Shown here: piece by piece, positions 14,669-32,923 of the stretch
How positions within the stretch are numbered: the stretch's first letter is position 1
How the letters are laid out: each line of letters starts with the position of its first letter
Assembly: GCF_024397855.1 (NCBI RefSeq)
Contig: NZ_CP073343.1
Span: 434,001-498,000 of the forward strand
Direction: 5' to 3'
DNA: 64,000 nt
From: Marinomonas rhizomae
GTDB lineage: Bacteria; Pseudomonadota; Gammaproteobacteria; Pseudomonadales; Marinomonadaceae
Translations under genes and position numbers: made by a program
Notes under the pieces: generated by a model
The model's input: only the letters and a program-made list of their open reading frames with translations
What the model was told of the DNA's origin: nothing
Database searches by the model: none

Positions 14669-15946
14669 TTAGCGGTACAAAAGGGTAGGTAACCACATTG
14701 AAATAGCGGGAATAAAGGTTAGCAAAAGTAGCACTGAAACGAGTGGGATTAAGAATGGTGCAGTAGCTATTACACATCGTTCAAATGGCGTGTCAGAGAC
14801 TTTTGCAAGAACATATAGCACCATGCCTACTGGAGGGGTAAGTAACCCAAGCATTAAGTTCAGAATCAAAATAATACCGAAATGGACTGGATCAATTCCT
14901 ATTTGTACTGCTACCGGTAAAAGTACTGGTACTAAAATGGTTATAGCGGCAATTGTCTCCATGAAACAGCCAATTATTAATACCATGACGGTGATAATGA
15001 GCAGTATCATGATTTTATTTTCGGTGAAAGTAAGCAGCTGCTCTGCAAAAAAAGTGGCGAATTGGTTCGCGGTCAGAATCCACGCAAAAATCGTTGACGT
15101 TGCGACTATCATTAAGATTGAGGCGGTTGTTTCAATGGTTTCTTGCGACACTCGAATAAGGCTTTTAAAGGAAAGTGTGCGATAAACATACATTCCTAGG
15201 AACATGGAGTAAGCAACAGCCGCGACAGCTGCTTCAGTTGGTGTAAATATCCCGGTTGCTATCCCTCCTACGATAATCACAGGTGTCATTAACGGGAGGC
15301 ATGCACGTTTAAAAGTAGCCCATAATATACGGATGCTAAAATGGTCATCTTTCGGATAGTTACGCACTTTTGCGAACCAAGACACCATAATCATCAGTGC
15401 AAAAGCCATCAGTAAACCAGGCACAAGACCAGCGGCAAAGAGTTGGCCGATGGAGGTGTCTGCCATCACACCATATATCACTAAAGGGAGAGATGGGGGG
15501 ATAATCGGACCAATAGTGGAAGAGGCTGCCGTAATTCCAACGGAAAAATCCGTATCGTACCCTGCGTCTTTCATTGCCTTAATTTCTACGTTCCCAAGGC
15601 CTCCGGCATCCGCTACCGCTGCGCCAGACATGCCGGCAAAGATAACGCTAGCACCTACGTTTACATGACCTAATCCGCCGGGCATCCACCCAACTAAAGA
15701 TCGGGCAAAGGAGAAAATACGATTGGTAATTCCCCCCGTATTCATTAAGTGCCCTGCCAGTATAAAGAATGGAATGGCGATTAAGGTGAAACTATTAACG
15801 CCATTCACCATGTTATGCAATACCACAATACTGGGCATGCCTTCCATTATTATGAAGATTAAAGAAGCGACGCCGAGTGACACAGCAACAGGTACACCAA
15901 TCACTAACAGCACAAATAAAATAAGAAACATGAAAAGAATAGACAT
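14669..15946 (-). CDS. dctM: TRAP transporter large permease (DctM)
   Basis: 425 residues, very hydrophobic, around twelve transmembrane segments. Family landmarks include 'GLGHVNVGASVIFAGMSGAAVAD', 'IIPPSLPLVIYGVMADTSIGQLF' and 'LGLLTPPVGMVLYVLAKV'. It forms the sodium-driven translocation channel of a tripartite carboxylate importer with the DctQ and DctP genes upstream. RBS AGGA precedes the ATG. Last gene of an operon that also encodes lgoD-, uxaB- and uxaA-like enzymes, so the probable cargo is a sugar acid such as L-galactonate or a hexuronate (inference). Confidence 0.94.
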   Translation of the reverse strand: MSILFMFLILFVLLVIGVPVAVSLGVASLIFIIMEGMPSIVVLHNMVNGVNSFTLIAIPFFILAGHLMNTGGITNRIFSFARSLVGWMPGGLGHVNVGASVIFAGMSGAAVADAGGLGNVEIKAMKDAGYDTDFSVGITAASSTIGPIIPPSLPLVIYGVMADTSIGQLFAAGLVPGLLMAFALMIMVSWFAKVRNYPKDDHFSIRILWATFKRACLPLMTPVIIVGGIATGIFTPTEAAVAAVAYSMFLGMYVYRTLSFKSLIRVSQETIETTASILMIVATSTIFAWILTANQFATFFAEQLLTFTENKIMILLIITVMVLIIGCFMETIAAITILVPVLLPVAVQIGIDPVHFGIILILNLMLGLLTPPVGMVLYVLAKVSDTPFERCVIATAPFLIPLVSVLLLLTFIPAISMWLPTLLYR

Positions 15947-15961
15947 AAAAATCCTTAGCCT

Positions 15962-16534
15962 TCAATCAGGTACGATCTGATCATTAATATGACTAACCAA
16001 TTCATCACTGTTTTGTCTGCAGTGTTTTATCAGCCACAGTAAAGAGTGACAGGCCATCAAAATGAAGCAAACTCCAATAGTCCAATAGATATATGACTTT
16101 GGTATTGGTATCGAAACGAGTGTTTGATGTAGACGCATTGCTACTTGAAAAGACAAATGTGCACAATACGCATAAAAAATTACACATGTAGCATCAGCAA
16201 ACATCACTAGGCCTTTTGTTAGTCCTGCTGGTAAGTAGCGATATATGAATTCTAAAAATATATGGCTACCTTTTCTAACAGCTGTAATTGACCCAATAAA
16301 GCCGACCATAATAAGTAAGTAGCGCGCGATTTCTTCCGTCCAGCCGGGCGAATCATTTAACACATAACGAGTGAAAAATTGCCAAAAAACAACGATGATC
16401 AACATCCAGAAAAATAGCATCACCGGTAAATCGGCTAGGTTAAATTTGAATGAATCCTCGACCTGATCTTCATCAATCAGATCGAGGGGAAGCGAGCTCT
16501 CTTTAGCTCGCTCTTGTGTCTGTTGATTATCCAT
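15962..16534 (-). CDS. dctQ: TRAP transporter small permease (DctQ)
   Basis: 190 residues with four hydrophobic helices after a polar N-terminus of about 35 residues. 'DSPGWTEEIARYLLIMVGFIGS' is the DctQ signature. It assists the large permease in the inner membrane. Start set at ATG 16534 behind AGGGG; the preceding in-frame TTG is less likely. It sits between dctP and dctM with gaps under 25 bp, so it is clearly co-transcribed. Confidence 0.92.
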   Translation of the reverse strand: MDNQQTQERAKESSLPLDLIDEDQVEDSFKFNLADLPVMLFFWMLIIVVFWQFFTRYVLNDSPGWTEEIARYLLIMVGFIGSITAVRKGSHIFLEFIYRYLPAGLTKGLVMFADATCVIFYAYCAHLSFQVAMRLHQTLVSIPIPKSYIYWTIGVCFILMACHSLLWLIKHCRQNSDELVSHINDQIVPD

Positions 16535-16554
16535 CAAGCAGCCCCTCTATGTAT

Positions 16555-17586
16555 TTATAGCGCTTCTAATTCAGCTAATTGTTCAGCAGTGAATCCATTA
16601 TCTTGGGAGTTAAGCAAAGGCTGAATCGCATCGACAAATGGTTGCTTATTCACTTCCTGTACTATGACACCCTGATCTTTGAACCAGCTGACAAGGTTTT
16701 GTTCTGACTCATTAATTGCCTCAGAAGCTTTACTCGCAGCTTGATTGGTAATAGAGACAATGGTTTTGTAGTCATCGCTACTGACTTTGTTTTTTGTGTA
16801 ACTCGAGATCATGGTGAAAACAGAGTTAGTCATGTGTCCGGTTAAATTTATATATTTTTGGACTTCATAAAACTTTTTAAATTTGATTGTTGGTAATGGG
16901 TTTTCCTGACCATCAACAACTCCCATTTGAAGAGCTAGGTATACTTCCGAAAATGGGATTGGTGTTGGGTTTGCCCCAACAGCTTGTGGAAACATCAGAT
17001 AGAGGGGAGCATTCGGTACTCGAATTTTCATGCCTTCCATATCTTGAGGTTTAGTTATTGGGAAGTTGGATGTGACATGACGCGAACCATAGTAAGTAAA
17101 ACCTGCTACATCGTGACCTGTTTGTTTTTCATATTCGGATGTAATATTTTTATATAAGCTGCTGTCACGATAATGCTTCCAGTGGTTAAAATCGCGTATT
17201 GCAAATGGGAAAGAAGAGATACGCATAGGTGCATAAGTTTGTCCCGCGAAAATGTCACCAGTATAAATAATATCAACCGCCCCAAAATCTAATGCCTCAC
17301 TAAGCTCGGCTTCCTTACCTAGAGATGAAGCAGGGTAGGCGTTAATTTTTACTCTTCCTTCCGTCTGTTTTTCTATTTCATCGGCAGCCCATAATAGGGC
17401 TTCATGGTAAGCTGATCCGGTTTCATAGACGTGAGCCCATTTTAGCGTCGTTGCTGCATTTGCTGAACCAGCAAAACCAAGGCCAACGGCAATGGTTGAA
17501 GCCGCGACTAAGAAAGTACGGCGAGTTAATTTATTTAAAAAAGTAGCTTGGCTAGTTTCGTTTATTTTACGACTGATTTTCATCAT
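16555..17586 (-). CDS. dctP: TRAP transporter substrate-binding protein (DctP), Tat-exported
   Basis: About 343 residues. The N-terminus has a twin-arginine signal (TRRTFLVAASTIAVGLGFAG) ending near SANA, so this protein is probably exported folded. The mature DctP domain shows 'KWAHVYETGSAYHEALLWAADEIEKQ' style openings, 'MEGMKIRVPNAPLYL' with the conserved arginine that clamps the substrate carboxylate, and 'LALQMGVVDGQENPL'. Start at ATG 17586 behind AGGT. A stem-loop in the 117-bp gap after uxaA may raise its expression over the enzymes. Substrate inferred as a sugar acid of the uxaA/uxaB/lgoD pathway. Confidence 0.92.
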   Translation of the reverse strand: MMKISRKINETSQATFLNKLTRRTFLVAASTIAVGLGFAGSANAATTLKWAHVYETGSAYHEALLWAADEIEKQTEGRVKINAYPASSLGKEAELSEALDFGAVDIIYTGDIFAGQTYAPMRISSFPFAIRDFNHWKHYRDSSLYKNITSEYEKQTGHDVAGFTYYGSRHVTSNFPITKPQDMEGMKIRVPNAPLYLMFPQAVGANPTPIPFSEVYLALQMGVVDGQENPLPTIKFKKFYEVQKYINLTGHMTNSVFTMISSYTKNKVSSDDYKTIVSITNQAASKASEAINESEQNLVSWFKDQGVIVQEVNKQPFVDAIQPLLNSQDNGFTAEQLAELEAL

Positions 17587-17665
17587 GATTTTACCTATTT
17601 TATTTTTATAAAAAATCAAAGGGTTTACTTAGGTGTAGACAAGCAACGTTTCCTAAGTCGTTTCG

Positions 17666-17702: not shown

Positions 17703-19343
17703 TTATAAAGAAACACCTCGTTTCCATGGAATAAAGTCATCTTGACCAAGCCGCTTTGCTTTTGTTGCATAGGCGCCTGACACGGTTTCAAGACACAACT
17801 CAAATAAGTCATTGCTTAATACGTCTAAGGTATTCTCACCCGTCACGATTGGACCGGCATCAAAATCAATAATATCTGGCATACGCTCGGCGATGGTTGA
17901 GTTGCTAGAAATTTTGAGCACTGGAACAATAGGGTTACCTGTTGGTGTGCCAAGTCCTGTTGAAAATAAAATAAGGTTTGCTCCCGATGCGACTAATGCC
18001 GTCGTGGATTCGACATCATTTCCAGGAGTACACAGCAAATTTAATCCCGGTTGAGTCATGAGTTCAGTGTAATCAAGCACATCCGAAACTGGCGCGGCTC
18101 CACCTTTCAATGCCGCCCCAGCGGATTTCATTGCATCGGTTATTAAGCCATCACGAATATTTCCCGGAGAGGGGTTCATATCAAAAGAAGCGCCAGCCGC
18201 AAGAGCATGAGCTTCATATGCTTTCATTAATCCAGAAAAGCGGCTTTTCAATTCGGGGCGGGTACAACGATCTAACATATTCTGTTCTACGCCACATAGC
18301 TCAGGAAACTCGCCTAATATCGATGCGCCACCAAGTGCCACCGCTTTGTCAACGACACGACCAATAAGTGGGTTAGCGGATAAACCAGAAAAACCATCGG
18401 AACCACCGCATTCAACACCAATTTTAAGAGCCGACAGAGGTACCGCTTCTCGTTGATATTGATTCGCTTTGACTAGCCCTTCAAACGTGCCTTTTATAGC
18501 CGCATCCATCATAGTGCGCTCTTTTCCATAAGCCTGTTGCTCAAACCATAAAACAGGTGTATCACCGTTTGGCTCAAGTCTGGATAATTCCTCTTGTAAC
18601 AAAGACATTTGCGCGTTTTGGCAGCCAAGACTAAAGACCGTTGCTCCAGCCACATTAGGATGATGAATATAACCCGCTAAGAGTTTACAAAAAGACAACG
18701 CATCTTCTCGAGTTCCCCCACAACCAGCGGAATGAGTCAAAAACTTCACCCCATCAATGTTTGGAAAAACACGTTCCTGAGGTAATGAAATCAAATCCTC
18801 AGACATTGATGAAGCGTCCGGTTGATTCGTCAAATGCCCTTTTACCAAATTCCGAGCAAGGTCGATATAATGGGTCTCATTACTGTAACCAAGCGCATCT
18901 TGCAAAGCCGTTTTCATTTGCTCAACATTACGGTTTTGGCAAAACACTAAGGGGACTACAAGCCAGTAATTTGCTGTTCCTACTTGACCGTTTTCGCGTC
19001 GGATTCCTTGGAAGCTTGCCCCTTGCCACTTGGATACATCCGGCTTTTTCCATTCATAAGTTTGACCATCTTTGCCATATGTTTGACTACTATGCCGGGT
19101 GTTATCTGTTGTGATGGCTGTCCCTTGCTCAATGGTATTAATGGCTTTACCGACCGTGATGCCATACTGAATGAGCGTGTCTCCTTCAGCAAAATCAAGC
19201 GTGGCAAATTTGTGCTTGGCTTTAATATTTTCTTTTATAGGGTAATGAATGCCATCTAACTCGATGGTTTCACCCATTTGTAAGTTGTCGAGAGCCACAA
19301 TCAAGTTATCATCCGGATGTATTTTTAATACTCGGCGCTTCAT
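17703..19343 (-). CDS. uxaA: D-altronate dehydratase family protein UxaA
   Basis: 546 residues. An N-terminal SAF domain (about 1-90) is followed by the altronase catalytic region with 'NIDGVKFLTHSAGCGG', 'GVECGGSDGFSGLSANPLIG' and 'FDMNPSPGNIRDGLIT', including the cysteines and glycines of the family metal site. It dehydrates D-altronate to 2-keto-3-deoxy-D-gluconate in the cytoplasm. GAGGAG precedes the ATG, and the gene overlaps the uxaB-like gene by 4 bp. Being next to lgoD- and uxaB-like genes supports altronate as the true substrate, unlike the paralogue at 24958. No KDG kinase or KDPG aldolase gene is in the window, so the pathway ends elsewhere. Confidence 0.9.
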   Translation of the reverse strand: MKRRVLKIHPDDNLIVALDNLQMGETIELDGIHYPIKENIKAKHKFATLDFAEGDTLIQYGITVGKAINTIEQGTAITTDNTRHSSQTYGKDGQTYEWKKPDVSKWQGASFQGIRRENGQVGTANYWLVVPLVFCQNRNVEQMKTALQDALGYSNETHYIDLARNLVKGHLTNQPDASSMSEDLISLPQERVFPNIDGVKFLTHSAGCGGTREDALSFCKLLAGYIHHPNVAGATVFSLGCQNAQMSLLQEELSRLEPNGDTPVLWFEQQAYGKERTMMDAAIKGTFEGLVKANQYQREAVPLSALKIGVECGGSDGFSGLSANPLIGRVVDKAVALGGASILGEFPELCGVEQNMLDRCTRPELKSRFSGLMKAYEAHALAAGASFDMNPSPGNIRDGLITDAMKSAGAALKGGAAPVSDVLDYTELMTQPGLNLLCTPGNDVESTTALVASGANLILFSTGLGTPTGNPIVPVLKISSNSTIAERMPDIIDFDAGPIVTGENTLDVLSNDLFELCLETVSGAYATKAKRLGQDDFIPWKRGVSL

Positions 19344-20524
19344 AAAAACGTCTCCTCAACGGATTGATGAAATCCATTGGCTGATAAACATGCTGCTAAT
19401 TTAGGAAAGCTTTTAGCAGGCAAAACGTCTAAGCCTTTCTGATAAATAGGCAAAATACGGCGTTCAACTTTTGCTTGATGATTCTGGGCGATGTCGCTCA
19501 ATTTGTGTTGTAAGAATGGGTTCAAAAAACGCTCTCTAACGCTTTCCACATAAGACTCAACGTCTTCTGACAAGTTCGCTGCCAACAAAATAGGGATGAC
19601 TTCTTCTGCTAAAACGGATTCTAGCGCCGCGCGTAAATCTTTATGTTCCATTGCTTCTCGAACCGTCATTACCTCTTTCAGAGAGAGACCGTTAAGCTCG
19701 CCTTGCTTCCATAAATCAACTAAATATGTATGAGACAAGTTCAGTACACCAAGCTTTAGAAACTCGATGTCTTTTAGGCTATCCACTAACTTGATAGAAG
19801 TGTGTTGGCAAGGCAGTGTCAGGTTTCTCTGTTTTTCAATTGCCCATAATGCGTAGGGTTCTGCCACCGCACCAATGGGTTCAATGGCATCCGAAACAAT
19901 ACGATCCACTAAGGAGTTAGCCCAACAACAGGACTCTTGCAACCAAGATACAAACGGCTCTGATAGTTGCCATGTTTTGGCTAACCCAATAACCAAATCT
20001 TTTAACACATCGCCGTTATCCACAACCAGCTCACAAGGCATGATAACCAGCCCTTGTTGGTTGAAGTCAAAGCGTGCTTTTAGTAAGACCAAAAGCTTTG
20101 CTGGAAAGCTTTTGGGGGCCGTATTCGAGTTGAGCAAATCTGTGTGATCGTCAGCATTTAGCTGAAATCCTTGGTCGGCAGTATTAGACACCACATGCGA
20201 AACGCGTTGGCAAAACAACGTTTTGATGATTTGCCAATCCTCATCCGCTTGTAGTGCCATTTCAATGGCATTAATTTGATAAGTGCTATCAATGACATCA
20301 CCATCTTGAATGCCTTGTACTTTTACCGGATAAGTCGAATGCGAATTAAAAGCCGCCATGCGGTGCTTACCCGCTGGGCTACTAGACGATTGCACAATGG
20401 CAATTTTGCTCGATGACAAGCCTTGTGTAATGGACTCGCCAACAAAAAAATCGACGTGAGCCTGTAAAAAGCGGCTAGTGCCAAACTGCATAATTAAATT
20501 TTGGTTCAGCAAATTCTTCTGCAT
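19340..20524 (-). CDS. uxaB: Mannitol dehydrogenase/uronate reductase family protein (UxaB-like)
   Basis: 394 residues. An N-terminal Rossmann domain opens with 'MQFGTSRFLQAHVDFFV', and a C-terminal Dehydrog_MDH_C domain carries 'CWANSLVDRIVSDAI' and 'KLGVLNLSHTYLVDLW'. Family members reduce tagaturonate or fructuronate, or oxidise mannitol. Between an lgoD-like and a uxaA gene the fitting reaction is NADH-dependent reduction of D-tagaturonate to D-altronate. About 90 residues shorter than E. coli UxaB, but without obvious truncation. RBS GAGGTG overlaps the end of lgoD (3-bp gap), so translation is coupled. A fructuronate reductase role (UxuB) is the main alternative. Confidence 0.82.
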   Translation of the reverse strand: MQKNLLNQNLIMQFGTSRFLQAHVDFFVGESITQGLSSSKIAIVQSSSSPAGKHRMAAFNSHSTYPVKVQGIQDGDVIDSTYQINAIEMALQADEDWQIIKTLFCQRVSHVVSNTADQGFQLNADDHTDLLNSNTAPKSFPAKLLVLLKARFDFNQQGLVIMPCELVVDNGDVLKDLVIGLAKTWQLSEPFVSWLQESCCWANSLVDRIVSDAIEPIGAVAEPYALWAIEKQRNLTLPCQHTSIKLVDSLKDIEFLKLGVLNLSHTYLVDLWKQGELNGLSLKEVMTVREAMEHKDLRAALESVLAEEVIPILLAANLSEDVESYVESVRERFLNPFLQHKLSDIAQNHQAKVERRILPIYQKGLDVLPAKSFPKLAACLSANGFHQSVEETFL

Positions 20525-20527: not shown

Positions 20528-21538
20528 TTACACCTCAACCAAGGCTTTAATAACACCTGTCTCACTCTTGCTCCATAGAGGCAATAAGGTAGGTAAATCC
20601 AGTAAAGAGCCACGGTGAGTAATCATAGAAGAGACCACTGCACGCCCTTCACGCAAACATTTAATAACGTGTTCAAAATCTTCTTTTGTCGCATTCCGGC
20701 TGCCCATTAACGTCATTTCGCGCTTATGAAATTCAGGGTCTGAAAATTGAATGTCGGCTTTAACAACACTGACTAGAACCAAAGTGCCACCATGAGAAAC
20801 CCAGCCGAAACAAGACTGCATAGCCTTAGGATTTCCTGTTGCATCAAATACAGTCATTGGAAATTCATCATTTGTTAACGCTGCCAGCTCTTCTGTTGCC
20901 TTCTCTCCAGCCAATACCGTTGCGTCGACCTTTAGCGAGCTTTTACAATAATCTAAACGGTCTTGATTTATGTCCATCATGATCACACGAGCACCGCGCT
21001 CTTTAGCAAATTGCGCGACACCCATGCCAATAGGACCTGCTCCAACAACCAAGACATCCGTATTCGCTTCTAATCGAGAGCGACGAACAGCATGGGCGCC
21101 AATCGCTAAGCACTCAACAACCGCCATGTGATCTAATGGCATGTCATTAGTTTCAACAACGTAATCGATAGGAACTTGTAAGTATTCGGTCATCCCACCA
21201 TCCACATGCACACCAATGACTTGAATGTCTGTACAGCAGTTTGGTTTGCTATTTCGACAAGCAATGCATTTACCGCATGCCATGTAAGGTACAACATACA
21301 CATTCTGCCCTATAGCAAGATCCACACCTTCACCTACTGAATCAACAGTACCTGACAGTTCATGACCTAATACTCGTGGGTATTCAAAATAAGGTTGCTG
21401 CCCGCCAAAAGCATGAATATCCGTACCGCAGATACCGATGTGTTTGATTTTAATAATAACGTGCCCAGGTTTATCCACAGGACGCGCAACGTCTTGTATT
21501 TCAATAACACCAGGCTGAGTACAGATTGCAGATTTCAT
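20528..21538 (-). CDS. lgoD: Zinc-dependent dehydrogenase, LgoD-like L-galactonate 5-dehydrogenase
   Basis: 336-residue medium-chain dehydrogenase. Catalytic zinc site: 'GICGTDIHAFGGQQP' (Cys), 'LGHE' (His-Glu). Structural zinc: four cysteines in 'ACGKCIACRNSKPNCC'. Nucleotide fold: 'VLVVGAGPIGMGVAQFA'. 'IHAFGGQQPYFEYPRVLGHE' and 'FSDPEFHKREMTLMGSRNAT' closely recall E. coli LgoD (YjjN), which oxidises L-galactonate to D-tagaturonate. First gene of the operon ending at dctM, with a GGAAAG ribosome site. In this context it would feed L-galactonate into the UxaB-UxaA route. Other polyol dehydrogenase activities cannot be excluded from sequence. Confidence 0.82.
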   Translation of the reverse strand: MKSAICTQPGVIEIQDVARPVDKPGHVIIKIKHIGICGTDIHAFGGQQPYFEYPRVLGHELSGTVDSVGEGVDLAIGQNVYVVPYMACGKCIACRNSKPNCCTDIQVIGVHVDGGMTEYLQVPIDYVVETNDMPLDHMAVVECLAIGAHAVRRSRLEANTDVLVVGAGPIGMGVAQFAKERGARVIMMDINQDRLDYCKSSLKVDATVLAGEKATEELAALTNDEFPMTVFDATGNPKAMQSCFGWVSHGGTLVLVSVVKADIQFSDPEFHKREMTLMGSRNATKEDFEHVIKCLREGRAVVSSMITHRGSLLDLPTLLPLWSKSETGVIKALVEV

Positions 21539-24957: not shown

Positions 24958-26478
24958 ATGATCATTGGGTCCAAACAAACCATTCGTTTACATGCTAATG
25001 ATAACGTCGTTATCGCCTTAAGTGACCTTGCTGAAGGCAGTAAATTAAACGAATTTGATATCACGCTACTGAGCTATGTCCCAAGAGGTCATAAAGTCGC
25101 GCTTAAAGAAATAGCGAAAGGCGATAATGTTATTCGCTATGGCCAAATCATTGGTCAAGCTACGCAAGCCATTGCCGTCGGCGAACATGTTCATGTTCAA
25201 AATATGGGTATGGGCGAGCACCTGCAAGACTATGCGTTTTCTCGCAACAGCAACTCGCTGCCTCCCATATCACCAGCGCGCACTTTTAACGGTTACCATC
25301 GCCAGAATGGCAAAGTAGGGACTCGTAATTATTTAGGCATTTTGACGTCGGTAAATTGCGCAGGCTCGGTCGCACGTTTTATCGAAGAGGCGGCTACTAA
25401 AACTGATTTCCTAAAAGATTATCCGAATATTGATGGCATCGTGCCGATTGTTCATAGCACTGGCTGTGGCATGTCGAGTCAAGGCGAAGGCTATCAAACT
25501 CTTCACCGTACGCTGACGGGTTATGCCAATAATCCAAATTTCGGCGGCATTTTGTTGGTCGGTCTTGGCTGTGAAGTACTGCAAGTGTCTAGCCTTGTGG
25601 ACAGCCAAGAACCGAGTGCTGCCTTTCGTTATATGACGATTCAGTCTGAAGGCGGTACGCGAAAAACAATCGAAAAAGGCTTACAGGAACTGCATTTATT
25701 AGCTCAAAAGGCAAATAAAGCAACACGAGAACCTGCTCCTGTCTCCGAAATTATGGTCGGTATGCAATGTGGTGGCTCCGATGGCTATTCCGGCATTACG
25801 GCTAATCCAGCTTTAGGTTATGCCTCTGATTTATTAGTTCGTCACGGTGGCACTACTATCCTCTCAGAAACATCTGAAGTGTATGGCGCGGAACATTTAT
25901 TGACGCGACGTGCTGTGTCTACGGAGGTCGGAAAAAAACTGATTGATCGGATTCATTGGTGGGAAGACTACTGTGCTCGTAATGGCGGCGAAATGGACAA
26001 CAATCCAAGTCCGGGTAATAAAAATGGTGGTTTAACTACCATTCTTGAAAAGTCTTTGGGAGCAGTTGCCAAAAGCGGCAGCGCGCCATTAACCGATGTT
26101 TACCTGTTTGGCGAAGCGATTGATAAAAAAGGCTTTGTATTTATGGATAGCCCAGGCTTTGACCCATGCTCAGTAACCGGGCAAGTCGCGTCGGGCGCCA
26201 ATATGATTATTTTTACCACAGGACGTGGTTCAGTTTCAGGTTATAAGCCTACGCCATGTATTAAGTTGGCAACTAATACAGAAATGTATCGTCGGCTTCA
26301 AGAGGACATGGATTTGAACTGTGGAGATATCGTCACTAGTGGTGTGTCAATTGAAGAAAAAGGTACGGAGCTATTCGAGCTAATTATTCGAATTGCGTCA
26401 GGTGAAGAAACAAAAAGTGAAGCGTTAGGTTTTGGCGGGGCAGAATTTGTGCCTTGGCAAATTGGCGCAGTGATGTAG
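24958..26478 (+). CDS. D-altronate dehydratase family paralogue, predicted L-fuconate dehydratase
   Basis: 506 residues with the same architecture as UxaA: N-terminal SAF domain, then 'NIDGIVPIVHSTGCGMSSQ', 'GMQCGGSDGYSGITANPALG' and 'MDNNPSPGNKNGGLTT'. The start is the ATG at 24958 behind AGGGG, not the GTG at 24934. First gene of the plus operon whose other products fit L-fucose catabolism. No enolase-type fuconate dehydratase is present, so this protein is the best candidate for L-fuconate to 2-keto-3-deoxy-L-fuconate. Family members acting on L-fuconate, L-galactonate or D-arabinonate have been reported. Specificity here is inference from context. Confidence 0.82.
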   Translation: MIIGSKQTIRLHANDNVVIALSDLAEGSKLNEFDITLLSYVPRGHKVALKEIAKGDNVIRYGQIIGQATQAIAVGEHVHVQNMGMGEHLQDYAFSRNSNSLPPISPARTFNGYHRQNGKVGTRNYLGILTSVNCAGSVARFIEEAATKTDFLKDYPNIDGIVPIVHSTGCGMSSQGEGYQTLHRTLTGYANNPNFGGILLVGLGCEVLQVSSLVDSQEPSAAFRYMTIQSEGGTRKTIEKGLQELHLLAQKANKATREPAPVSEIMVGMQCGGSDGYSGITANPALGYASDLLVRHGGTTILSETSEVYGAEHLLTRRAVSTEVGKKLIDRIHWWEDYCARNGGEMDNNPSPGNKNGGLTTILEKSLGAVAKSGSAPLTDVYLFGEAIDKKGFVFMDSPGFDPCSVTGQVASGANMIIFTTGRGSVSGYKPTPCIKLATNTEMYRRLQEDMDLNCGDIVTSGVSIEEKGTELFELIIRIASGEETKSEALGFGGAEFVPWQIGAVM

Positions 26479-26559: not shown

Positions 26560-27309
26560 ATGAGACTCAAGGGAAAAACAATATTAATAACAGCTGCTGG
26601 CCAAGGAATTGGTAGAGCAAGTGCCGAAGCCTGTTTAAAAGAAGGGGCGCATGTCATTGCTACAGATATCAATGATGAGGCGCTTAAATCTTTGCAGCAA
26701 GATTGCCCAACTATACAAACACATATACTCGATGTTACGGACGCCAATTCGATTAAATCATTCGCTGAGCAGATGCCCAATCTAGATGGTTTGTTTAATT
26801 GCGCAGGTTTTGTTCATAACGGCACTGTTTTAGATATTAGTGATGAAAATTGGGAGTTCAGTGTGAACTTGAATGTCACTTCTATGATGCGTATGTGTCG
26901 AGCTTTTCTACCCGGTATGTTGAAGCAAGCCGAAATTACTGGCTCTTCTTCTGTCGTCAATATGGCTTCTATGGCCTCTTCAATCAAAGGCTTCCCAATG
27001 CGGACAGCCTATGGCGCGACCAAAGCAGGTGTCATTGGATTATCAAAAGGCATTGCAGCGGATTTTGTCAAACAAGGTATTCGTTGTAACTCGGTTTGCC
27101 CTGGAACGGTGAATACGCCTTCCCTACAAGGTCGTATCGCTTCAGCCGCTGATCCAGTTCAAGCTCAAAAAGATTTTATCGCTCGCCAACCTATGGGGCG
27201 CCTAGCTGAGGTAAGTGATATTACGCCAATCATTGTGTACTTGCTGTCCGATGAGAGTGCATTTATGACGGGGCAGTCTTTGCTCGTAGATGGTGGTGTG
27301 ACGATTTAA
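26560..27309 (+). CDS. Short-chain dehydrogenase, predicted 2-keto-3-deoxy-L-fuconate dehydrogenase
   Basis: 249-residue classical SDR. Cofactor loop 'TAAGQGIGRA', Asp in 'ATDIND' favouring NAD, NAG-like 'NCAG', catalytic Ser in 'NMASMASS', and 'YGATK' with the Tyr-Lys pair. The C-terminus 'GQSLLVDGGVTI' is intact. It resembles the BDH2/fuconate-pathway branch, and it stands between the dehydratase and the ABC transporter, before a diketo-acid hydrolase gene. The fitting reaction is oxidation of 2-keto-3-deoxy-L-fuconate at C4 to the 2,4-diketo acid. Confidence 0.85.
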   Translation: MRLKGKTILITAAGQGIGRASAEACLKEGAHVIATDINDEALKSLQQDCPTIQTHILDVTDANSIKSFAEQMPNLDGLFNCAGFVHNGTVLDISDENWEFSVNLNVTSMMRMCRAFLPGMLKQAEITGSSSVVNMASMASSIKGFPMRTAYGATKAGVIGLSKGIAADFVKQGIRCNSVCPGTVNTPSLQGRIASAADPVQAQKDFIARQPMGRLAEVSDITPIIVYLLSDESAFMTGQSLLVDGGVTI

Positions 27310-27365: not shown

Positions 27366-28856
27366 ATGCCGTTATTGGTTGAAATGAGTGGAATTGAAAA
27401 ACGATTTCCCGGTGTATATTCCCTGAGAGGTGTTAATTTCGATCTTGAAAAAGGTGAAGTACATGCTTTGATGGGTGAGAACGGTGCTGGTAAGTCGACG
27501 TTGATGAAAATACTGTCTGGTGTTTATCAAAAAGACGGTGGCACAGTAAAAGTCGATGACCAACTTGCTGTCTTTGATGGCCCAAAAGCTGCGCAAAATG
27601 CGGGTATTGGCATCATTCATCAGGAACTGAGTTTGATGAATGATCTGACCGTTGCTCAAAATGTGTTTATTGGTCGAGAACCTCGTTCTGCTTGGGGGGT
27701 GATTGACGAAAAACGTTTAAATGCTCAGGCAAGTGACATCTTTAAGAAGATGAATTTCGATATTGATCCGATGACTGAAATTGGCAGTTTAACGGTCGCT
27801 AAGCAACAGATGGTCGAAATAGCCAAGGCTTTATCTTTTCAATCACGCGTTCTCATTATGGATGAGCCAACAGCGGCTTTGAATGATGCGGAGATTGCAG
27901 AGTTGTTTGTCATTATCCGTCGCCTGAAAGCGGAAGGTGTTGGCATCATCTATATCAGTCACAAGATGGATGAAATCAAGCAAATCGCAGACCGCGTTAC
28001 TGTGCTACGCGATGGTGAATACATCGGCACAGTTGAGGCTAAAGAGACGCCACTATCTGAAATTATCTCAATGATGGTTGGTCGCGAAGTGAAAGATGAA
28101 ACGGTTGATATCCCCGATTTGTCTGATCAGCCTGAGCTACTTTCTGTGAAAGGCCTGAATCGCGGAAAAGAGATCAAGGATGTCAGTTTTTCTCTCAAGA
28201 AAGGCGAGATTTTAGGTTTTGCGGGTTTAATGGGAGCAGGGCGAACCGAAGTAGCTCGTGCCATTTTCGGTGCAGATCCAATCGATTCTGGTGAGGTTTG
28301 GGTAAATGGTAAGCACTGCCAAATCCAATCTCCCAGTGATGCCGTTGCTGCAGGTATTGGGTATTTGTCGGAAGACCGTAAACACTTTGGCTTAGCTTTA
28401 GGTATGGATGTACGAGCCAACATCGCTATGGCTGCGTTAAATCGTTTTACTGGTTCTGTAGGGGCACTGAATGAATCGGAAATGAGTTCTGTAGCCAATG
28501 GTTATATTAAGCAGTTAGGTATTAGAACCCCGTCTGATACACAGGAAGTCGGCTTTTTGTCTGGTGGTAATCAGCAAAAAGTAGTCATTGCAAAATGGTT
28601 ATTAAGAGACTGTGACATTTTGATTTTTGATGAACCAACGCGAGGAATTGATGTGGGTGCCAAGTCGGAGATTTATAAATTATTAGAATCTCTCGCCAAG
28701 CAAGGTAAAGCGATTATTGTCATTTCTTCGGAGTTACCTGAAGTAATGCGCCTAAGCCATCGAATTGCCGTTATGTGCCAAGGGAAACTTACTGGAATAT
28801 TGCCCGGTGGAAAAGCAACAAATCAAGAACAAATTATGGCATTAGCCACTCAGTAA
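27366..28856 (+). CDS. Sugar ABC transporter, duplicated ATP-binding protein (RbsA/XylG type)
   Basis: 496 residues with two ABC domains. The first has Walker [10 protein letters not shown] (about residues 40-48). The second, degenerate half has 'GLMGAGRTE' near 290, signature '[16 protein letters not shown]' and Walker B '[15 protein letters not shown]'. This is the standard CUT2 family ATPase powering uptake of a monosaccharide. RBS ACGGAG lies before the ATG. Encoded with its permease and binding-protein genes inside the fucose operon, so L-fucose and/or L-galactose is the inferred cargo. Confidence 0.93.
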
Positions 28857-28878: not shown

Positions 28879-29886
28879 ATGATAACCGAAAGCCAAAAGG
28901 CATCACCAAGTCTTATCAGTAAGTTGATAAAAATGTCAGCACATCAGCGAGTGCTCGCCTTTGCGAGTTTGATCGTATTATTGATCGTGTTTTCTATCGC
29001 TTCCCCGAATTTTATGCAGACATCGAATATGCTGGCGATTCTGCAAGCGACGTCTGTTAATGGCGTTCTAGCTGTGGCAGCCACGTTAGTAATTATCTCC
29101 GGCGGTATTGATTTGTCTGTCGGAACCTTGATGACATTCACCGCTGTAGTTGCTGGTGTACTGTTAACCAATATGAATTTGCCACTGCCAATTGGTGTGC
29201 TTGGTGCCATTCTAGCAGGTGCATTTTGTGGTTTCTGCTCTGGCTCTTTTGTTGCCAAGATGAAGATTCCACCTTTTATTGCCACATTGGGCATGATGCT
29301 GATTTTAAAAGGTTTGTCATTGGTGGTAAGCGGTGCGCGCCCTATTTACTTCAATAACACGCCAGGTTTTGACGAGATTTCGCGTGGTTCCCTAATTGGT
29401 GAAGTCTTACCTTTTCTACCTATTCCAAACGGTGTGTTGATTCTGTTCATTGTTGCTGGTGTGGCGAGTTACGTATTGAGTAAAACCATTCTAGGTCGTT
29501 ATTGCTTCGGTATTGGTTCTAATGAAGAGGCTGTACGTTTATCTGGTGTGAATACGGACTTTTGGAAAATTGCGATTTATGCGGTAGCGGGTGGTATTTG
29601 TGGTATTGCTGGGATTTTGATTTCGTCACGTTTGAACTCGGCTCAACCCGCCCTTGGTCTTGGTTATGAATTGGAAGCGATTGCCGCTGTAGTCATTGGT
29701 GGTACATCTTTGTCAGGTGGGCGTGGAACGATAATCGGTACACTAATCGGTGCACTCATTATGGCGGTATTAACGAACGGCTTACGCGTACTGTCTGTTG
29801 CACAAGAATGGCAGACTGTTGTCACCGGTATCATCATTATCTTAGCAGTTTACGCCGATATGATGCGCCGTCAAAAGTCTAAATAA
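28879..29886 (+). CDS. Sugar ABC transporter permease (RbsC type)
   Basis: 335 residues, about ten membrane helices. CUT2 permease marks: 'VNGVLAVAATLVIISGGIDLSVG' near residue 60, 'GLGYELEAIAAVVIGGTSLSGG' near 260, and 'GTLIGALIMAVLTNGL'. A single permease gene suggests a homodimer. RBS AGGAGA, 22 bp after the ATPase gene. Inner-membrane channel of the sugar importer. Confidence 0.93.
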   Translation: MITESQKASPSLISKLIKMSAHQRVLAFASLIVLLIVFSIASPNFMQTSNMLAILQATSVNGVLAVAATLVIISGGIDLSVGTLMTFTAVVAGVLLTNMNLPLPIGVLGAILAGAFCGFCSGSFVAKMKIPPFIATLGMMLILKGLSLVVSGARPIYFNNTPGFDEISRGSLIGEVLPFLPIPNGVLILFIVAGVASYVLSKTILGRYCFGIGSNEEAVRLSGVNTDFWKIAIYAVAGGICGIAGILISSRLNSAQPALGLGYELEAIAAVVIGGTSLSGGRGTIIGTLIGALIMAVLTNGLRVLSVAQEWQTVVTGIIIILAVYADMMRRQKSK

Positions 29887-29984: not shown

Positions 29985-30932
29985 ATGTTGTCACGTCGCA
30001 AATTAGTAGGTCTTATCAGTGCTGTTACTATTATGGCAGCGTCATCTTTTGTGCAAGCAGATGACCAGCCATATATTCCACTGATTTCAAAAGGGTTTCA
30101 GCATCAGTTTTGGCAAGCTGTGAAACAAGGTGCCGATCAGGCTGCAAAAGAATTCAACGTACGCGTTACATTTGAAGGGCCTGATACGGAAGCACAAGTG
30201 GATCGCCAGATTGATATGTTAGCCGCGGCATTAGCCAATAAACCCGATGCCATTGGTTTTGCTGCTTTAGATAGCCAAGCGGCTATTCCTCTGTTACGTA
30301 AAGCACAAAAAGCCGGTATTCCAATTGTTGCGTTCGATAGTGGAGTGGAAAGTGATATTCCAGTAACAACAGCAACGACGGATAACTTGGCAGCTTCTGC
30401 ATTAGCGGCAGACAAAATGGCTGAGTTGATTGGTAATAAAGGACAAGTCGCTGTTGTGGCTCACAGTCAAACAGGGACAACAGGCATTGATCGCCGTGAT
30501 GGCTTTCTAAAACGCATGAAAGAAGCTCATCCAAATATTGACGTGGTTACCGTTCAATACGGTGATGGCGATCAACTGAAATCAACGGAAGTTGCTCGTG
30601 CAATTCTGACCTCTTATCCAAAGCTAGCCGGTATGTTTGGTACCAATGAAGGTTCTGCTGTCGGCGTGGTAAATGCGGCCCGTGAGTCTAAAGCTAAAGA
30701 TCTTGTCATTATCGGCTTTGATTCAGGTACAGCTCAGATGAATGCGATTCGTAGTGGTTTGATGGCTGGTGCTATTACACAGAACCCAATCGGTATTGGT
30801 TATGAAACTGTGAAAGCAGCGGTTAAAACCATCAAGGGTGAAAAGGTGCCAAAAATTATCGACACAGGCTTCTATTATTACACGGCTAAAAACATCGACG
30901 ATCCAAAAATCGCTGCAGTTCTATATAAATAA
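29985..30932 (+). CDS. Sugar ABC transporter periplasmic binding protein (RbsB type)
   Basis: 315 residues: signal peptide 1-25 (cleavage after VQA) and a two-lobed periplasmic-binding fold of the ribose/galactose class. Visible marks are 'PLISKGFQHQFWQAVKQGA', 'DRQIDMLAAAL', 'GIPIVAFDSGVE', 'GTTGIDRRDGF', 'MFGTNEGSAVG' and 'VIIGFDSG'. GGAGGA precedes the ATG. A strong terminator follows immediately, so the distal hydrolase and reductase genes depend on read-through or a separate promoter. It selects the sugar for the importer; L-fucose or L-galactose is inferred. Confidence 0.92.
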   Translation: MLSRRKLVGLISAVTIMAASSFVQADDQPYIPLISKGFQHQFWQAVKQGADQAAKEFNVRVTFEGPDTEAQVDRQIDMLAAALANKPDAIGFAALDSQAAIPLLRKAQKAGIPIVAFDSGVESDIPVTTATTDNLAASALAADKMAELIGNKGQVAVVAHSQTGTTGIDRRDGFLKRMKEAHPNIDVVTVQYGDGDQLKSTEVARAILTSYPKLAGMFGTNEGSAVGVVNAARESKAKDLVIIGFDSGTAQMNAIRSGLMAGAITQNPIGIGYETVKAAVKTIKGEKVPKIIDTGFYYYTAKNIDDPKIAAVLYK

Positions 30933-30939
30933 AAACTCT

Positions 30940-30977: not shown

Positions 30978-30994
30978 ACCGATAGGAGAAAACA

Positions 30995-31849
30995 ATGAAA
31001 TTAGTTCGCTTTGGGCCACTAGGGAAAGAAAAGCCAGGTTTACTTGATGATAACGGTCGAGTTCGTGATTTGTCGTCAGTCATTCCAGATTTATCTGATG
31101 AGCATCTAAGCTTAGCAAGCATGAAAGAGTTAAACACCTTAGATATTGATAGCTTGCCTTTGGTCGATGGCGTACCGCAAGAAGATCTGCGTCTCGGGGC
31201 TTGTGTGTCCAATGTGGGTAAGTTTATTTGTATTGGCTTGAATTATGCCGATCATGCTGCCGAATCTGGCATGCCTGTTCCTGCAGAGCCTGTTATTTTC
31301 AATAAATGGACGTCGGCGATTGTTGGGCCAAATGATGATGTGAAAATTCCAAAAGGCTCTGAAAAAACCGATTGGGAAGTGGAATTAGGTATCGTTATTG
31401 GCGAAGGCGGCAGTGACATTGCAGAAGCTGATGCAATGAAGCACGTTGCGGGTTTTTGTGTGATCAATGATGTGTCAGAGCGTGCATTCCAGCTTGAGGG
31501 AACAGGCACTTGGGACAAAGGGAAAGGCTGCGACACCTTTGGTCCAACGGGACCTTGGTTAGTAACCCCAGATGAAGTCGGTGACTTCAATGATCTTGGA
31601 ATCTGGTTAGAAATCGATGGTAAACGTTACCAAAATGGCTCGACATCAACCATGGTATTTAAAGTGCCTCATTTGATTGCTTATTGCAGCCGATATATGA
31701 GCTTGCAACCGGGCGATATTATTTCAACTGGTACGCCACCGGGTGTAGGTTTGGGTTTCAATCCGCCAATTTATCTAAAAGGTGGTGAAGAAATGAAGCT
31801 TGGCATTGATAAGCTCGGTGTGCAATGTCAGAAAGTCGTTAAGGCTTAG
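30995..31849 (+). CDS. Fumarylacetoacetate hydrolase family protein, predicted 2,4-diketo-3-deoxy-L-fuconate hydrolase
   Basis: 284 residues. The FAH fold is marked by 'FICIGLNYADHAAESG', the metal-binding acidic motif 'DWEVELGIVIG', 'GFCVINDVSERAFQ' and the C-terminal 'GDIISTGTPPGVGLGF'. In the non-phosphorylative L-fucose route of Xanthomonas-type bacteria such an enzyme splits 2,4-diketo-3-deoxy-L-fuconate into pyruvate and L-lactate. RBS AGGAG. It lies just after the terminator that ends the transporter genes. Other acylpyruvate hydrolase activities are possible, but all neighbours fit fucose. Confidence 0.87.
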   Translation: MKLVRFGPLGKEKPGLLDDNGRVRDLSSVIPDLSDEHLSLASMKELNTLDIDSLPLVDGVPQEDLRLGACVSNVGKFICIGLNYADHAAESGMPVPAEPVIFNKWTSAIVGPNDDVKIPKGSEKTDWEVELGIVIGEGGSDIAEADAMKHVAGFCVINDVSERAFQLEGTGTWDKGKGCDTFGPTGPWLVTPDEVGDFNDLGIWLEIDGKRYQNGSTSTMVFKVPHLIAYCSRYMSLQPGDIISTGTPPGVGLGFNPPIYLKGGEEMKLGIDKLGVQCQKVVKA

Positions 31850-31880
31850 ATTCAACAGCACCAATATTCATATGGCAACT

Positions 31881-31915
31881 CAACTCCTTGTGAACCCTGT
31901 GGGTGCAAGGAGTTG
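31881..31915 (+). other. Stem-loop in the gap before the aldo/keto reductase gene
   Basis: CAACTCCTTG and CAAGGAGTTG, a perfect 10-bp stem, with an inner ACCC-TGT-GGGT. No T-run follows, so more likely an mRNA stability/processing element than a terminator. Confidence 0.5.
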
Positions 31916-31933
31916 TGATTAAGTGAGTAAGCA

Positions 31934-32923
31934 ATGAAAACAAGAATAATAAACAGCAGTGGTTCCTCTATTACAGAAATAGGGTTTGGTTGTGCCGGCG
32001 CAGGTAATTTATTTCGTCCGGTGTCTTACGAGAATATCTGTGGTGCCGTTCTTAAAGCGAGTGAGTTAGGTGTTCAGTACTTTGATACCGCTCCTCATTA
32101 TGGCGCCGGCCTCTCAGAGCGTCGTTTAGGCTTGGCTCTTGGCGAAACGCTACACCAAGATATTTTCCTATCCACAAAAGTGGGAAGATTGCTGCATCCG
32201 GACTGCAAAGTAGATCAAAAAGAAGCAGACGGCTTTGTTGGCGCAAGCCCTTTTGATCGTGAATACAATTATACCTACGATGGCGTTATGCGATCCTTCG
32301 AAGACTCTCTTCAGCGGCTTGGCGTGAGCCATATTGATATGCTGTTAATGCATGATATAGGTGAGCTGACTCATAAAGAACAGCACGTCATGTATTTTCA
32401 ACAAGCCATTGAGGGTGGCTTTAGAGCGATGATGGAATTACGTGATCAAGGTTTAGTGCGCAATATTGGTTTAGGTGTGAACGAATGGCAAATATGCGAT
32501 CAAGCCATGAATCACGCCCAGTTTGATTGCTTTATGGTTGCCAATTGTTTTACCTTATTAAACAACGATATTACGCATACCTTTACTGACAAATGTAGCA
32601 AGAATAATGTTTCTCTTATTGCCGCCGCGCCGTTTAATTCTGGCATTCTAGCCAAAGGCTCTAAAAATTTAGGCCATTATTTCTATGGTGAAGCGCCTAA
32701 AGACATTGTCGATAAAGTCATTGCCATAGAATCTATTTGTGATCAATTTGATGTCTCGCTACAGGCGGCCGCGATTCAATACGCATTACGTTATGATTGT
32801 GTGAAATCTGTGCTAATTGGCATGACTAATGAAGATCGAGTTATACAAAATATAGCTTGGTATGAAGAATCTATTCCTGAAGCATTCTGGCAGGCATTAG
32901 CGCCGATCATTTACTCATCATAA
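31934..32923 (+). CDS. Aldo/keto reductase, predicted L-fucose (L-galactose) 1-dehydrogenase
   Basis: 329-residue TIM-barrel oxidoreductase. Catalytic set: Asp in 'YFDTAPHYG', Tyr in the same motif, Lys in 'FLSTKVGRLL', His in 'MLLMHDIG'. C-terminal cofactor region 'SVLIGMTNEDRVIQNI'. It belongs to the D-threo-aldose/L-fucose 1-dehydrogenase group (also including pyridoxal 4-dehydrogenase), which oxidises L-fucose and often L-galactose to the 1,5-lactone. It would give the substrate of the lactonase at 22834. Last gene of the fucose operon; weak ribosome site. Confidence 0.87.
   Translation: MKTRIINSSGSSITEIGFGCAGAGNLFRPVSYENICGAVLKASELGVQYFDTAPHYGAGLSERRLGLALGETLHQDIFLSTKVGRLLHPDCKVDQKEADGFVGASPFDREYNYTYDGVMRSFEDSLQRLGVSHIDMLLMHDIGELTHKEQHVMYFQQAIEGGFRAMMELRDQGLVRNIGLGVNEWQICDQAMNHAQFDCFMVANCFTLLNNDITHTFTDKCSKNNVSLIAAAPFNSGILAKGSKNLGHYFYGEAPKDIVDKVIAIESICDQFDVSLQAAAIQYALRYDCVKSVLIGMTNEDRVIQNIAWYEESIPEAFWQALAPIIYSS

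What the first reader, a model, noticed from the sequence alone, without database searches (positions are those of the whole stretch)
14669..32923. One locus may combine L-fucose and L-galactose breakdown with two altronate-dehydratase paralogues
Seen: lgoD-, uxaB-, uxaA- and TRAP genes on one side; fucU, lactonase, AKR, dehydratase, SDR, FAH hydrolase and a sugar ABC importer on the other, with two GntR genes between. Known: AKR/lactonase pairs of this group act on both L-fucose and L-galactose, which differ only at C6; LgoD turns L-galactonate into tagaturonate. Inference: uptake, mutarotation, oxidation and lactone opening are shared, then L-fuconate goes to pyruvate and lactate, while L-galactonate goes via altronate to KDG. 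Both sugars occur in algal sulfated polysaccharides. I do not recall this joint arrangement being described.
Basis: partly seen in the sequence, partly recalled or inferred. Interest (0 to 1): 0.72.

Follow-up and report, generated by a model that had tools for sequence, protein, structure and literature searches.

The report
Side-by-side L-fucose and L-galactonate gene cassettes
A marine Marinomonas bacterium carries its L-fucose breakdown genes next to a separately controlled set for a closely related sugar acid, L-galactonate; such a pairing was already published for other bacteria, but here the second set is a clean add-on block, and three related species lack one of its enzymes, as if the fucose enzyme could do its job.

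Summary
The genes are real and correctly placed; the genome is a Marinomonas. Two adjacent modules are present. (1) An oxidative L-fucose module: fucU, lactonase, GntR 'FucR', a UxaA/GarD-family dehydratase (called GD2 here), SDR, RbsABC-type importer, FAH hydrolase, AKR. (2) An L-galactonate cassette: lgoR, lgoD, uxaB, uxaA, TRAP. The cassette is a block of about 8.2 kb that four relatives with the same fucose locus lack at that site. An exact palindrome occurs once per genome, at the fucR/GD2 promoter, in 9 of 9 Marinomonas genomes with GD2. So the modules look juxtaposed and separately regulated rather than fused. The joint arrangement is not new: Halomonas loci were described in 2017 (PMC5507952). 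The two dehydratases are distant paralogues (30% identity). Shared upstream handling of free L-galactose is plausible from family biochemistry and other loci, but unproved here. Most novel open point: three Marinomonas species keep lgoD (two also uxaB) but have no uxaA, so GD2 may dehydrate both L-fuconate and D-altronate.

The parts
14617..14645 (-). Terminator-like hairpin (11 pairs) at the end of the lgo operon; lies inside the cassette
   Evidence: Terminator scan (12 terminator-like sites found in 10.6 kb against 8.5 +/- 3.9 in shuffles; this one has the most pairs); cassette border near 14,597
14669..15946 (-). dctM, TRAP large permease
   Evidence: TIGR00786 7e-135, PF06808 6e-128
15962..16537 (-). 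dctQ, TRAP small permease
   Evidence: PF04290 7e-27
16555..17619 (-). dctP, TRAP solute-binding protein; predicted L-galactonate/L-fuconate uptake
   Evidence: PF03480 6.5e-68; 48% to the DctP of the joint Neorhizobium locus; the highest-scoring solved structures are sialate-binding and other DctP proteins
17703..19343 (-). uxaA-type altronate dehydratase (UxaA1)
   Evidence: PF20629 1e-90; best E. coli match UxaA 32%, GarD 29%; clade with flavobacterial lgo-locus UxaA; 4 family cysteines kept
19340..20524 (-). uxaB-type tagaturonate reductase
   Evidence: NF002969 2e-71, below its cut-off
20528..21538 (-). lgoD, L-galactonate 5-dehydrogenase
   Evidence: 45% to E. coli LgoD, 8.7e-94, against 32% to RspB; GHE and C..C..C.......C zinc motifs
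21767..21790 (.). Inverted repeat in the lgoR-lgoD spacer; candidate LgoR operator
   Evidence: Imperfect palindrome, 91%, one of 5 inverted repeats in this spacer; stretch partly conserved in 6 Marinomonas loci
21937..22839 (+). lgoR, GntR-family regulator of the lgo cassette
   Evidence: 35.5% over 293 aa to E. coli LgoR, 6.5e-73, divergent from lgoD as in E. coli
22834..23661 (-). L-fucono-1,5-lactonase-like amidohydrolase
   Evidence: NF052480 8.8e-72, below its cut-off
23651..24145 (-). fucU, L-fucose mutarotase
   Evidence: NF011949 4.5e-28, below its cut-off; PF05025 3e-34
24157..24849 (-). fucR, GntR/FCD regulator
   Evidence: PF00392 and PF07729; sits beside GD2 in 9 of 9 GD2-bearing Marinomonas loci, the window included
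24867..24880 (.). ACTAACATGTTAGT palindrome, predicted FucR operator
   Evidence: Invariant in 9 of 9 loci; the only exact copy in the window and in each of 9 genomes
24958..26478 (+). GD2: UxaA/GarD-family dehydratase, predicted L-fuconate dehydratase (longest ORF starts 24934)
   Evidence: PF20629 6e-102; no enolase-type FucD orthologue in 48 genomes; present in all 8 Marinomonas loci with the lactonase at 64% or more
26560..27309 (+). SDR, predicted L-2-keto-3-deoxyfuconate 4-dehydrogenase
   Evidence: PF13561 3.5e-57
27366..28856 (+). RbsA-type ABC ATPase
   Evidence: NF008030 1e-173, below its cut-off
28879..29886 (+). RbsC-type permease
   Evidence: NF007067 3e-80, below its cut-off
29985..30932 (+). 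RbsB-type sugar-binding protein
   Evidence: PF13407 7.5e-57
30995..31849 (+). FAH-family 2,4-diketo-3-deoxy acid hydrolase
   Evidence: NF053535 8e-119, below its cut-off
31934..32923 (+). Aldo/keto reductase, predicted L-fucose (L-galactose) 1-dehydrogenase
   Evidence: PF00248 6e-48

Best explanation
The region is two self-contained catabolic modules placed side by side in a Marinomonas. Module 1, under FucR, imports L-fucose by an RbsABC-type importer and mutarotates it (FucU). It oxidises it (AKR), opens the lactone, dehydrates L-fuconate with a UxaA/GarD-family enzyme in place of enolase-type FucD, oxidises C4 (SDR) and hydrolyses the product (FAH) to pyruvate and L-lactate. Module 2, under LgoR, is an L-galactonate cassette: TRAP uptake of L-galactonate (probably L-fuconate too), LgoD to D-tagaturonate, UxaB to D-altronate, UxaA to KDG. 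Overlap of the two is expected at TRAP uptake of L-fuconate, and possibly at the AKR/lactonase if free L-galactose is met. Shown by sequence: gene content, LgoR/LgoD orthology, cassette borders, a unique conserved palindrome, absence of a FucD orthologue. Inferred: all substrates, the regulator-to-operator assignments, the direction of flow, and the KDG kinase and aldolase, which were not looked for genome-wide.
For: Families. LgoR and LgoD match the E. coli pair, same divergent layout. lgo loci without fucose genes exist: Thioclava LgoR|LgoD-UxaB-dehydratase-kinase + TRAP, Diaphorobacter. Fucose loci without LgoD: 4 of 8 Marinomonas loci with the lactonase at 64% or more. Synteny runs to 14,591-14,596 and resumes at 22,861-22,910 in G026, G030 and G002; in G011 the matches end at 14,164 and resume at 22,848; these four lack the block (letters). 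A terminator-like hairpin is inside the block. The exact palindrome occurs once per genome in 9 of 9 GD2 genomes, at fucR/GD2, and not exactly in 3 genomes without GD2. 5 of 6 LgoD genomes have no UxaC. No FucD orthologue in 48 genomes (best hits 24-34% identity over part of the query). M. balearica has fucR-GD2-SDR-FAH alone, no lactonase genome-wide at E <= 1e-20, and the lgo/TRAP cassette on another contig, fitting use of imported L-fuconate. Halomonas precedent with a TRAP proposed for L-fuconate and L-galactonate.
Against: No biochemistry or expression data. Several matches are below curated cut-offs. GD2 relatives at about 46-60% occur in LgoD, fucose-type, UxuB and galactarate (GarL) settings, so context does not fix GD2's substrate. 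LgoD survives in three species without UxaA, and in M. colpomeniae also without a UxaB orthologue and without LgoR at the locus, which the plain pathway does not explain. E. coli LgoD may also act on L-gulonate (title of Kuivanen and Richard 2014 in a reference list), and M. colpomeniae has UxuB-UxuA. The authors of the Halomonas report thought co-regulation likely, which separate operators here do not favour.
Confidence: 0.72

Rival explanations
1. One integrated pathway: free L-fucose and L-galactose are both imported by the ABC system, mutarotated, oxidised by the AKR and opened by the lactonase; L-fuconate and L-galactonate then part ways.
For: An AKR of Paraburkholderia mimosarum accepts D-arabinose, L-fucose and L-galactose (PMC6336799 passages), and the B. 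multivorans L-fucose dehydrogenase (SDR type) accepts L-galactose (PMC6946681 passages). Several loci join AKR and/or lactonase to LgoD: Catenovulum, Paenibacillus, N. galegae, Shinella (AKR with FucU), a locus ABC-AKR-lactonase-LgoD-UxaB-GD2-type, and Marinomonas G017 LgoD-UxaB-UxaA-lactonase-AKR. 11 of 20 fetched plasmid LgoD loci also carry fucose-type genes (with annotations).
Against: In this window the AKR and lactonase are closest to those of Marinomonas fucose loci, LgoD-less ones included; separate regulator genes, and no exact FucR palindrome before lgoD; TRAP points to acid uptake. G017, the relative with a stand-alone lgo locus, has its own different lactonase (37%) and AKR (26%). 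C. jejuni growth rose with L-fucose and D-arabinose but not with L-galactose despite weak dehydrogenase activity.
Confidence: 0.4
2. The minus-strand operon serves D-galacturonate (UxaC-UxaB-UxaA) and LgoD is incidental.
For: This genome has UxaC in a glucuronate locus (UxaC-UxuB-UxuA) at 1.63 Mb, so UxaB and UxaA could also take galacturonate-derived tagaturonate.
Against: UxaC is absent from the 5 other LgoD genomes; LgoR and LgoD head the operon and are the E. coli L-galactonate pair.
Confidence: 0.08
3. The 'fucose' module is mainly for D-arabinose (or handles it equally), since D-arabinonate and L-fuconate share C2-C4.
For: C. jejuni uses one fuc locus for both sugars; a UxaA/GarD-family D-arabinonate dehydratase is characterised in Herbaspirillum.
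Against: A lactonase scoring best to L-fucono-1,5-lactonase and a FucU-type mutarotase are present, both below the curated cut-offs.
Confidence: 0.2
4. GD2 is bifunctional and also dehydrates D-altronate (or L-galactonate) in species that lack UxaA.
For: In M. transparens, M. balearica and M. colpomeniae GD2 is the only GD_AH protein of the genome while LgoD is kept, and UxaB in the first two. GD2-type enzymes (51-56%) stand beside LgoD, often with UxaB, in alpha- and betaproteobacteria. D-arabinonate, D-altronate, L-fuconate and L-galactonate share C2-C4, and the Herbaspirillum D-arabinonate dehydratase showed 12, 5.6 and 2.4% activity on the last three.
Against: That same enzyme had a ~6,700-fold lower kcat/Km on D-altronate than on D-arabinonate, and the paper reports that part of the low activity did not give the product expected for dehydration. 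Residues that separate the 18-row GD2 clade from 8 LgoD-adjacent enzymes (for example S314 for P, F392 for Y) suggest divergence, although they did not track context in other lineages. Non-homologous altronate dehydratases were not excluded.
Confidence: 0.3

Closest known systems
Halomonas HL-48/HL-93 L-fucose/L-fuconate/L-galactonate loci and C. salexigens Csal_1738-1731 (PMC5507952, section 12 read whole)
   Same: L-fucose or L-fuconate genes clustered with lgoD, uxaA, uxaB (or uxaF) and a TRAP operon proposed for both acids
   Different: Text only was read, so gene order and dehydratase type were not compared; here the fuconate dehydratase is UxaA/GarD-type and the lgo genes form a block absent from relatives
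E. coli L-galactonate system lgoT-lgoR|lgoD with uxaB and uxaA
   Same: LgoR and LgoD orthologues in divergent layout; UxaB and UxaA steps
   Different: TRAP instead of the LgoT symporter at the locus; uxaB and uxaA in the same operon as lgoD
Oxidative L-fucose pathway (Xanthomonas; Burkholderia; C. jejuni)
   Same: Mutarotase, dehydrogenase, lactonase, SDR and FAH steps
   Different: AKR as first enzyme, where Burkholderia and C. jejuni have FabG-type SDRs; UxaA/GarD-type dehydratase instead of enolase-type FucD, as predicted from gene context for Paraburkholderia mimosarum
Luteolibacter lgu L-glucose/L-galactose pathway (PMC12632266, passages and Discussion read)
   Same: Dehydrogenase, 5-dehydrogenase, tagaturonate reductase, altronate dehydratase to KDG
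   Different: No L-fucose branch described; the LguA dehydrogenase showed no activity on L-fucose
Neorhizobium sp. NCHU2750 plasmid locus (L101)
   Same: TRAP (DctP 48%), LgoD, a GD2-type 'uxaA', FAH, SDR, lactonase, AKR, RbsABC in one region
   Different: A gene annotated fucD (L-fuconate dehydratase) and RhaM instead of FucU; GD2-type enzyme on the lgo side; a gene annotated uxuB where UxaB would stand

Membership tests
E. coli-type L-galactonate (lgo) system | LgoD orthologue | tested here: met
   45%, 8.7e-94; RspB only 32%
E. coli-type L-galactonate (lgo) system | LgoR divergent from lgoD | tested here: met
   35.5% over 293 aa, divergent
E. coli-type L-galactonate (lgo) system | LgoT-type symporter | tested here: not met
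   At the locus a TRAP transporter stands in the operon; LgoT itself was not sought in the rest of the genome
E. coli-type L-galactonate (lgo) system | Activity on L-galactonate | not testable with these tools
   -
Oxidative L-fucose pathway | Mutarotase, dehydrogenase, lactonase, SDR and FAH genes together | tested here: met
   several matches below curated cut-offs
Oxidative L-fucose pathway | Enolase-type FucD | tested here: not met
   No orthologue in 48 Marinomonas genomes; best hits 24-34% over part of the query
UxaA/GarD superfamily (both dehydratases) | Four conserved cysteines proposed to bind iron | tested here: met
   4 columns are Cys in 44 of 44 rows; UxaA1 135/208/241/312, GD2 142/178/213/279
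UxaA (altronate dehydratase) subfamily, for UxaA1 | Groups with E. coli UxaA rather than GarD | tested here: met
   Same side of the tree as Ec_UxaA, 100/99, but the tool flags long branches that meet
GarD (galactarate dehydratase), for GD2 | Groups with E. coli GarD | tested here: not met
   Separate clade; the genome's third GD_AH gene joins GarD 100/100; pairwise GD2 is nearer GarD (41%) than UxaA (37%)
Halomonas-type joint fuc/lgo locus | Fuc genes, lgoD, uxaA, uxaB and TRAP in one region | tested here: met
   compared with PMC5507952 text
Halomonas-type joint fuc/lgo locus | Shared regulation | tested here: inconclusive
   One exact FucR-type palindrome, at fucR/GD2 only; LgoR separate; no expression data

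The most novel reading that the evidence does not exclude
GD2, the L-fuconate dehydratase of the fucose module, also dehydrates D-altronate (same C2-C4 configuration), so that one enzyme closes two pathways. This would explain why M. transparens, M. balearica and M. colpomeniae lack uxaA while keeping lgoD (and, in the first two, uxaB), and would make the window's two dehydratases a case of partly redundant neighbours on the way to loss.
Probability: 0.3. Interest if true: 0.55.

Novelty: new member of a known kind. Interest (0 to 1): 0.35.

Why it matters
It shows how a sugar-acid cassette sits as a removable block beside an L-fucose locus, names the right regulator (LgoR), and gives FucR a one-site candidate operator. 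Natural absences of uxaA make a simple test of enzyme sharing between two pathways whose acids match at C2-C4. [quoted passage not shown]

Tried and rejected
Residue test for dehydratase function: six positions separate the 18-row GD2 clade from 8 LgoD-adjacent enzymes. Applied to 59 further loci they did not track context: of 11 loci labelled fucose-type (9 fucose only, 1 with LgoD, 1 with UxuB) none has S314 and 2 have F392 (L134, L159); 6 of the 11 carry exactly the six letters of the LgoD-adjacent set or differ from them at one position (one of the 59, L191, was a 104-residue fragment without letters at these positions). Rejected as a functional marker.

Recent duplication of the two dehydratases: rejected, 30% identity and different branches.

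Hexuronate operon: disfavoured. One shared FucR regulon: no exact palindrome before lgoD; the only other match in the window, with 3 mismatches, lies inside uxaB and is at chance level. Mobile-element borders: a search for exact shared words of 7-14 bases between the two junctions found none.

Class-wide sampling for LgoD was unproductive: 1 of 321 genomes at E <= 1e-80, the window's own. A PDB search of DctP matched 103 distinct sequences (best 60 shown) and gave no ligand assignment. An E. coli stretch fetched in the hope of a KDG kinase held other genes. Vetting 2015 is not held; its TRAP result is quoted through PMC5507952. No description of this arrangement in Marinomonas was seen in the listings of five paper searches, which cover open-licence PMC papers only.

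Counting notes: 20 of the 30 listed plasmid hits (58 records in all) were fetched, chosen to spread over genera. The 59 mapped GD2-like loci come from 79 matches in 71 of 398 genomes, one of them the window's own. For the dehydratase tree 9 of the 120 listed proteins were added to 35 sequences from loci and references; one row (L046, 399 aa) was dropped before the tree; the fragmented dehydratase of L102 was not used. Species names for G025, G020, G033 and G024 rest on equal match positions in the named loci L004-L007.
Full report
OBSERVATION. Two refinements matter. The GntR gene at 21937-22839 is the orthologue of E. coli LgoR (35.5% over 293 aa, E 6.5e-73), and LgoD matches E. coli LgoD (45%) better than RspB (32%); in E. 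coli lgoR and lgoD are divergent, as here. The second GntR gene (24157-24849) belongs to the fucose side, with fucU and the lactonase behind it on the same strand.

ORGANISM. The nearest named relatives of LgoD are Marinomonas (M. rhizomae 97%, M. balearica 94%, M. transparens 89%, M. colpomeniae 82%). The window lies in a 4.37 Mb single-contig genome. LgoD orthologues at 76% or more occur in 6 of 48 genus genomes (three further genomes have only a 42-43% relative), the lactonase at 64% or more in 8 of 48 (in G011 it is matched in two pieces; a ninth genome, G017, has a 38% relative), GD2 orthologues at 87% or more in 9 of 48.

TWO MODULES. Four of the eight fucose loci lack LgoD (G026, G030, G011, G002). 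Aligned to them, the window is collinear on the left to 14,596 (G026), 14,591 (G030) and 14,594 (G002), and again from 22,869, 22,861 and 22,910; in G011 the left match ends at 14,164 and the right one begins at 22,848. The spacer left in these genomes is about 50 to 360 bases (border letters). The block in between holds lgoR, lgoD, uxaB, uxaA and dctPQM plus a terminator-like hairpin. Whether it was gained in one lineage or lost in the others was not tested. In M. balearica the cassette stands on another contig without fucose genes nearby, and the fucose side is reduced to fucR, GD2, SDR and FAH with no lactonase in the genome at E <= 1e-20: a layout for L-fuconate taken up as such. In G017 the cassette has an ABC importer, its own lactonase (37%) and an AKR (26%); no TRAP gene like the window's was found in that 20 kb stretch.

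REGULATION. The fucR-GD2 spacer holds a palindrome, ACTAACATGTTAGT, invariant in 9 of 9 loci. Twelve genomes were searched with up to 1 mismatch: in each of the nine GD2 genomes the exact 14-mer occurs once, at this promoter; of three genomes without GD2 two have no match and one has a single 1-mismatch match; M. balearica has one extra 1-mismatch site. Control counts of the reversed pattern were 0 to 3 per genome. The 12-base core also stands in two fetched loci of other genera, L134 and L137, that carry GD2-type, FucR-type and fucose genes. No exact copy lies before lgoD. The lgoR-lgoD spacer has its own imperfect palindrome, one of five inverted repeats there, partly conserved in six loci. 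Separate control is the simplest reading; expression was not measured.

THE DEHYDRATASES. UxaA1 and GD2 share 30% identity. In a 44-row tree UxaA1 groups with flavobacterial lgo-locus enzymes (100/100) on the E. coli UxaA side; GD2 sits in a clade of 18 rows (98/100), among enzymes that stand next to LgoD elsewhere; the genome's third family member (548,434-549,948 of the genome) is GarD-like (100/100). The tool flags long branches that meet, and the root is for drawing only. All 44 rows keep four cysteines, in line with the four-cysteine iron site proposed in PMC6336799 (passages read). The Aquimarina locus L011 has an alpha-L-fucosidase, LgoD, a PfkB kinase, a KDPG aldolase, a UxaA1-type enzyme, UxaB, a lactonase, an SDR and an MFS transporter, which supports altronate to KDG to KDPG. 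No enolase-type FucD orthologue was found in 48 Marinomonas genomes, so GD2 is the best candidate for L-fuconate dehydration; GD2-like relatives in the phylum sample occur in several settings, so this rests on the Marinomonas loci.

A NATURAL EXPERIMENT. M. transparens and M. balearica keep LgoD, UxaB and TRAP but no UxaA1; M. colpomeniae keeps LgoD and TRAP only, without LgoR at the locus or a UxaB orthologue in the genome. In all three the only GD_AH protein of the genome is GD2, and none has UxaC. On the LgoD tree G017, which has UxaA1 and no GD2, branches first, then M. colpomeniae, then M. transparens; M. balearica is unresolved against the window and M. rhizomae, which have both. That asks for up to three losses, or fewer losses and a regain. 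Sharing of GD2 is one explanation. Others are an unrelated altronate dehydratase, or in M. colpomeniae use of LgoD on L-gulonate feeding UxuB-UxuA.

RECURRENCE ELSEWHERE. Of 20 plasmid LgoD loci fetched (of 58 records), 11 carry fucose-type genes within 12-15 kb (L073, L075, L088, L089, L090, L094, L097, L099, L100, L101, L102), 7 carry LgoD with UxaB and no fucose-type genes (L074, L076, L077, L091, L093, L095, L096; a dehydratase was also found in 6 of these 7, in L077 only a fragment), and 2 neither (L092, L098) (for records, for mapping). For L073, L075, L088, L089 and L090 part of the assignment rests on the record's annotation. No random-locus control was computed for this count. In the phylum sample 7 of 59 GD2-like loci have LgoD; two of these also have lactonase and AKR (L159, L176), while a lactonase appears in 2 of the 52 without LgoD.

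KNOWN AND NEW. The claim that free L-galactose enters by the fucose enzymes rests on relatives' enzymes and on other loci, and is left at 0.4.

Noticed in passing
window 10211-11647 (-): 478 aa ORF that joins an EamA-type transporter part (two stretches) to a C-terminal GNAT acetyltransferase domain; an uncommon-looking fusion.
   Followed up: no
G000:C1:548434-549948 (L082): Third GD_AH-family gene of the genome, GarD-like in the tree.
   Followed up: partly
G000:C1:1620001-1640000 (L083): Glucuronate locus: UxuR-like regulator, TRAP genes, an alpha-glucosidase/xylosidase-like gene, UxaC, UxuB, UxuA.
   Followed up: partly
G017:C11:132078-132983, G028:C1:1840205-1841110, G381:C22:11630-12553, G001:C8:649894-650799: Second LgoD-like type (42-43%) in four Marinomonas genomes; in the three whose surroundings were mapped (G017, G028, G001) a distant UxaB-like gene (25-26%) is adjacent. 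May serve another sugar acid.
   Followed up: no
L090 (Rufibacter tibetensis plasmid) 3383-3855: Two short UxaA1-like pieces (62% and 44%) near fucP, FAH and lactonase genes, with LgoD further along; looks like a decayed uxaA. Not mended.
   Followed up: no
G011:C32:16012-16832 (L070, L072, L084): The lactonase of this fucose locus is matched in two pieces that overlap by a few bases, perhaps a frameshift or a sequencing error. Not mended.
   Followed up: no
L101 and L073: A gene annotated L-rhamnose mutarotase is in the locus and no FucU was matched there.
   Followed up: no
L135 (G725): LgoR-like regulator, TRAP with DctM 70% identical to the window's, and a GD2-type dehydratase (64%) without LgoD above the thresholds used.
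   Followed up: no
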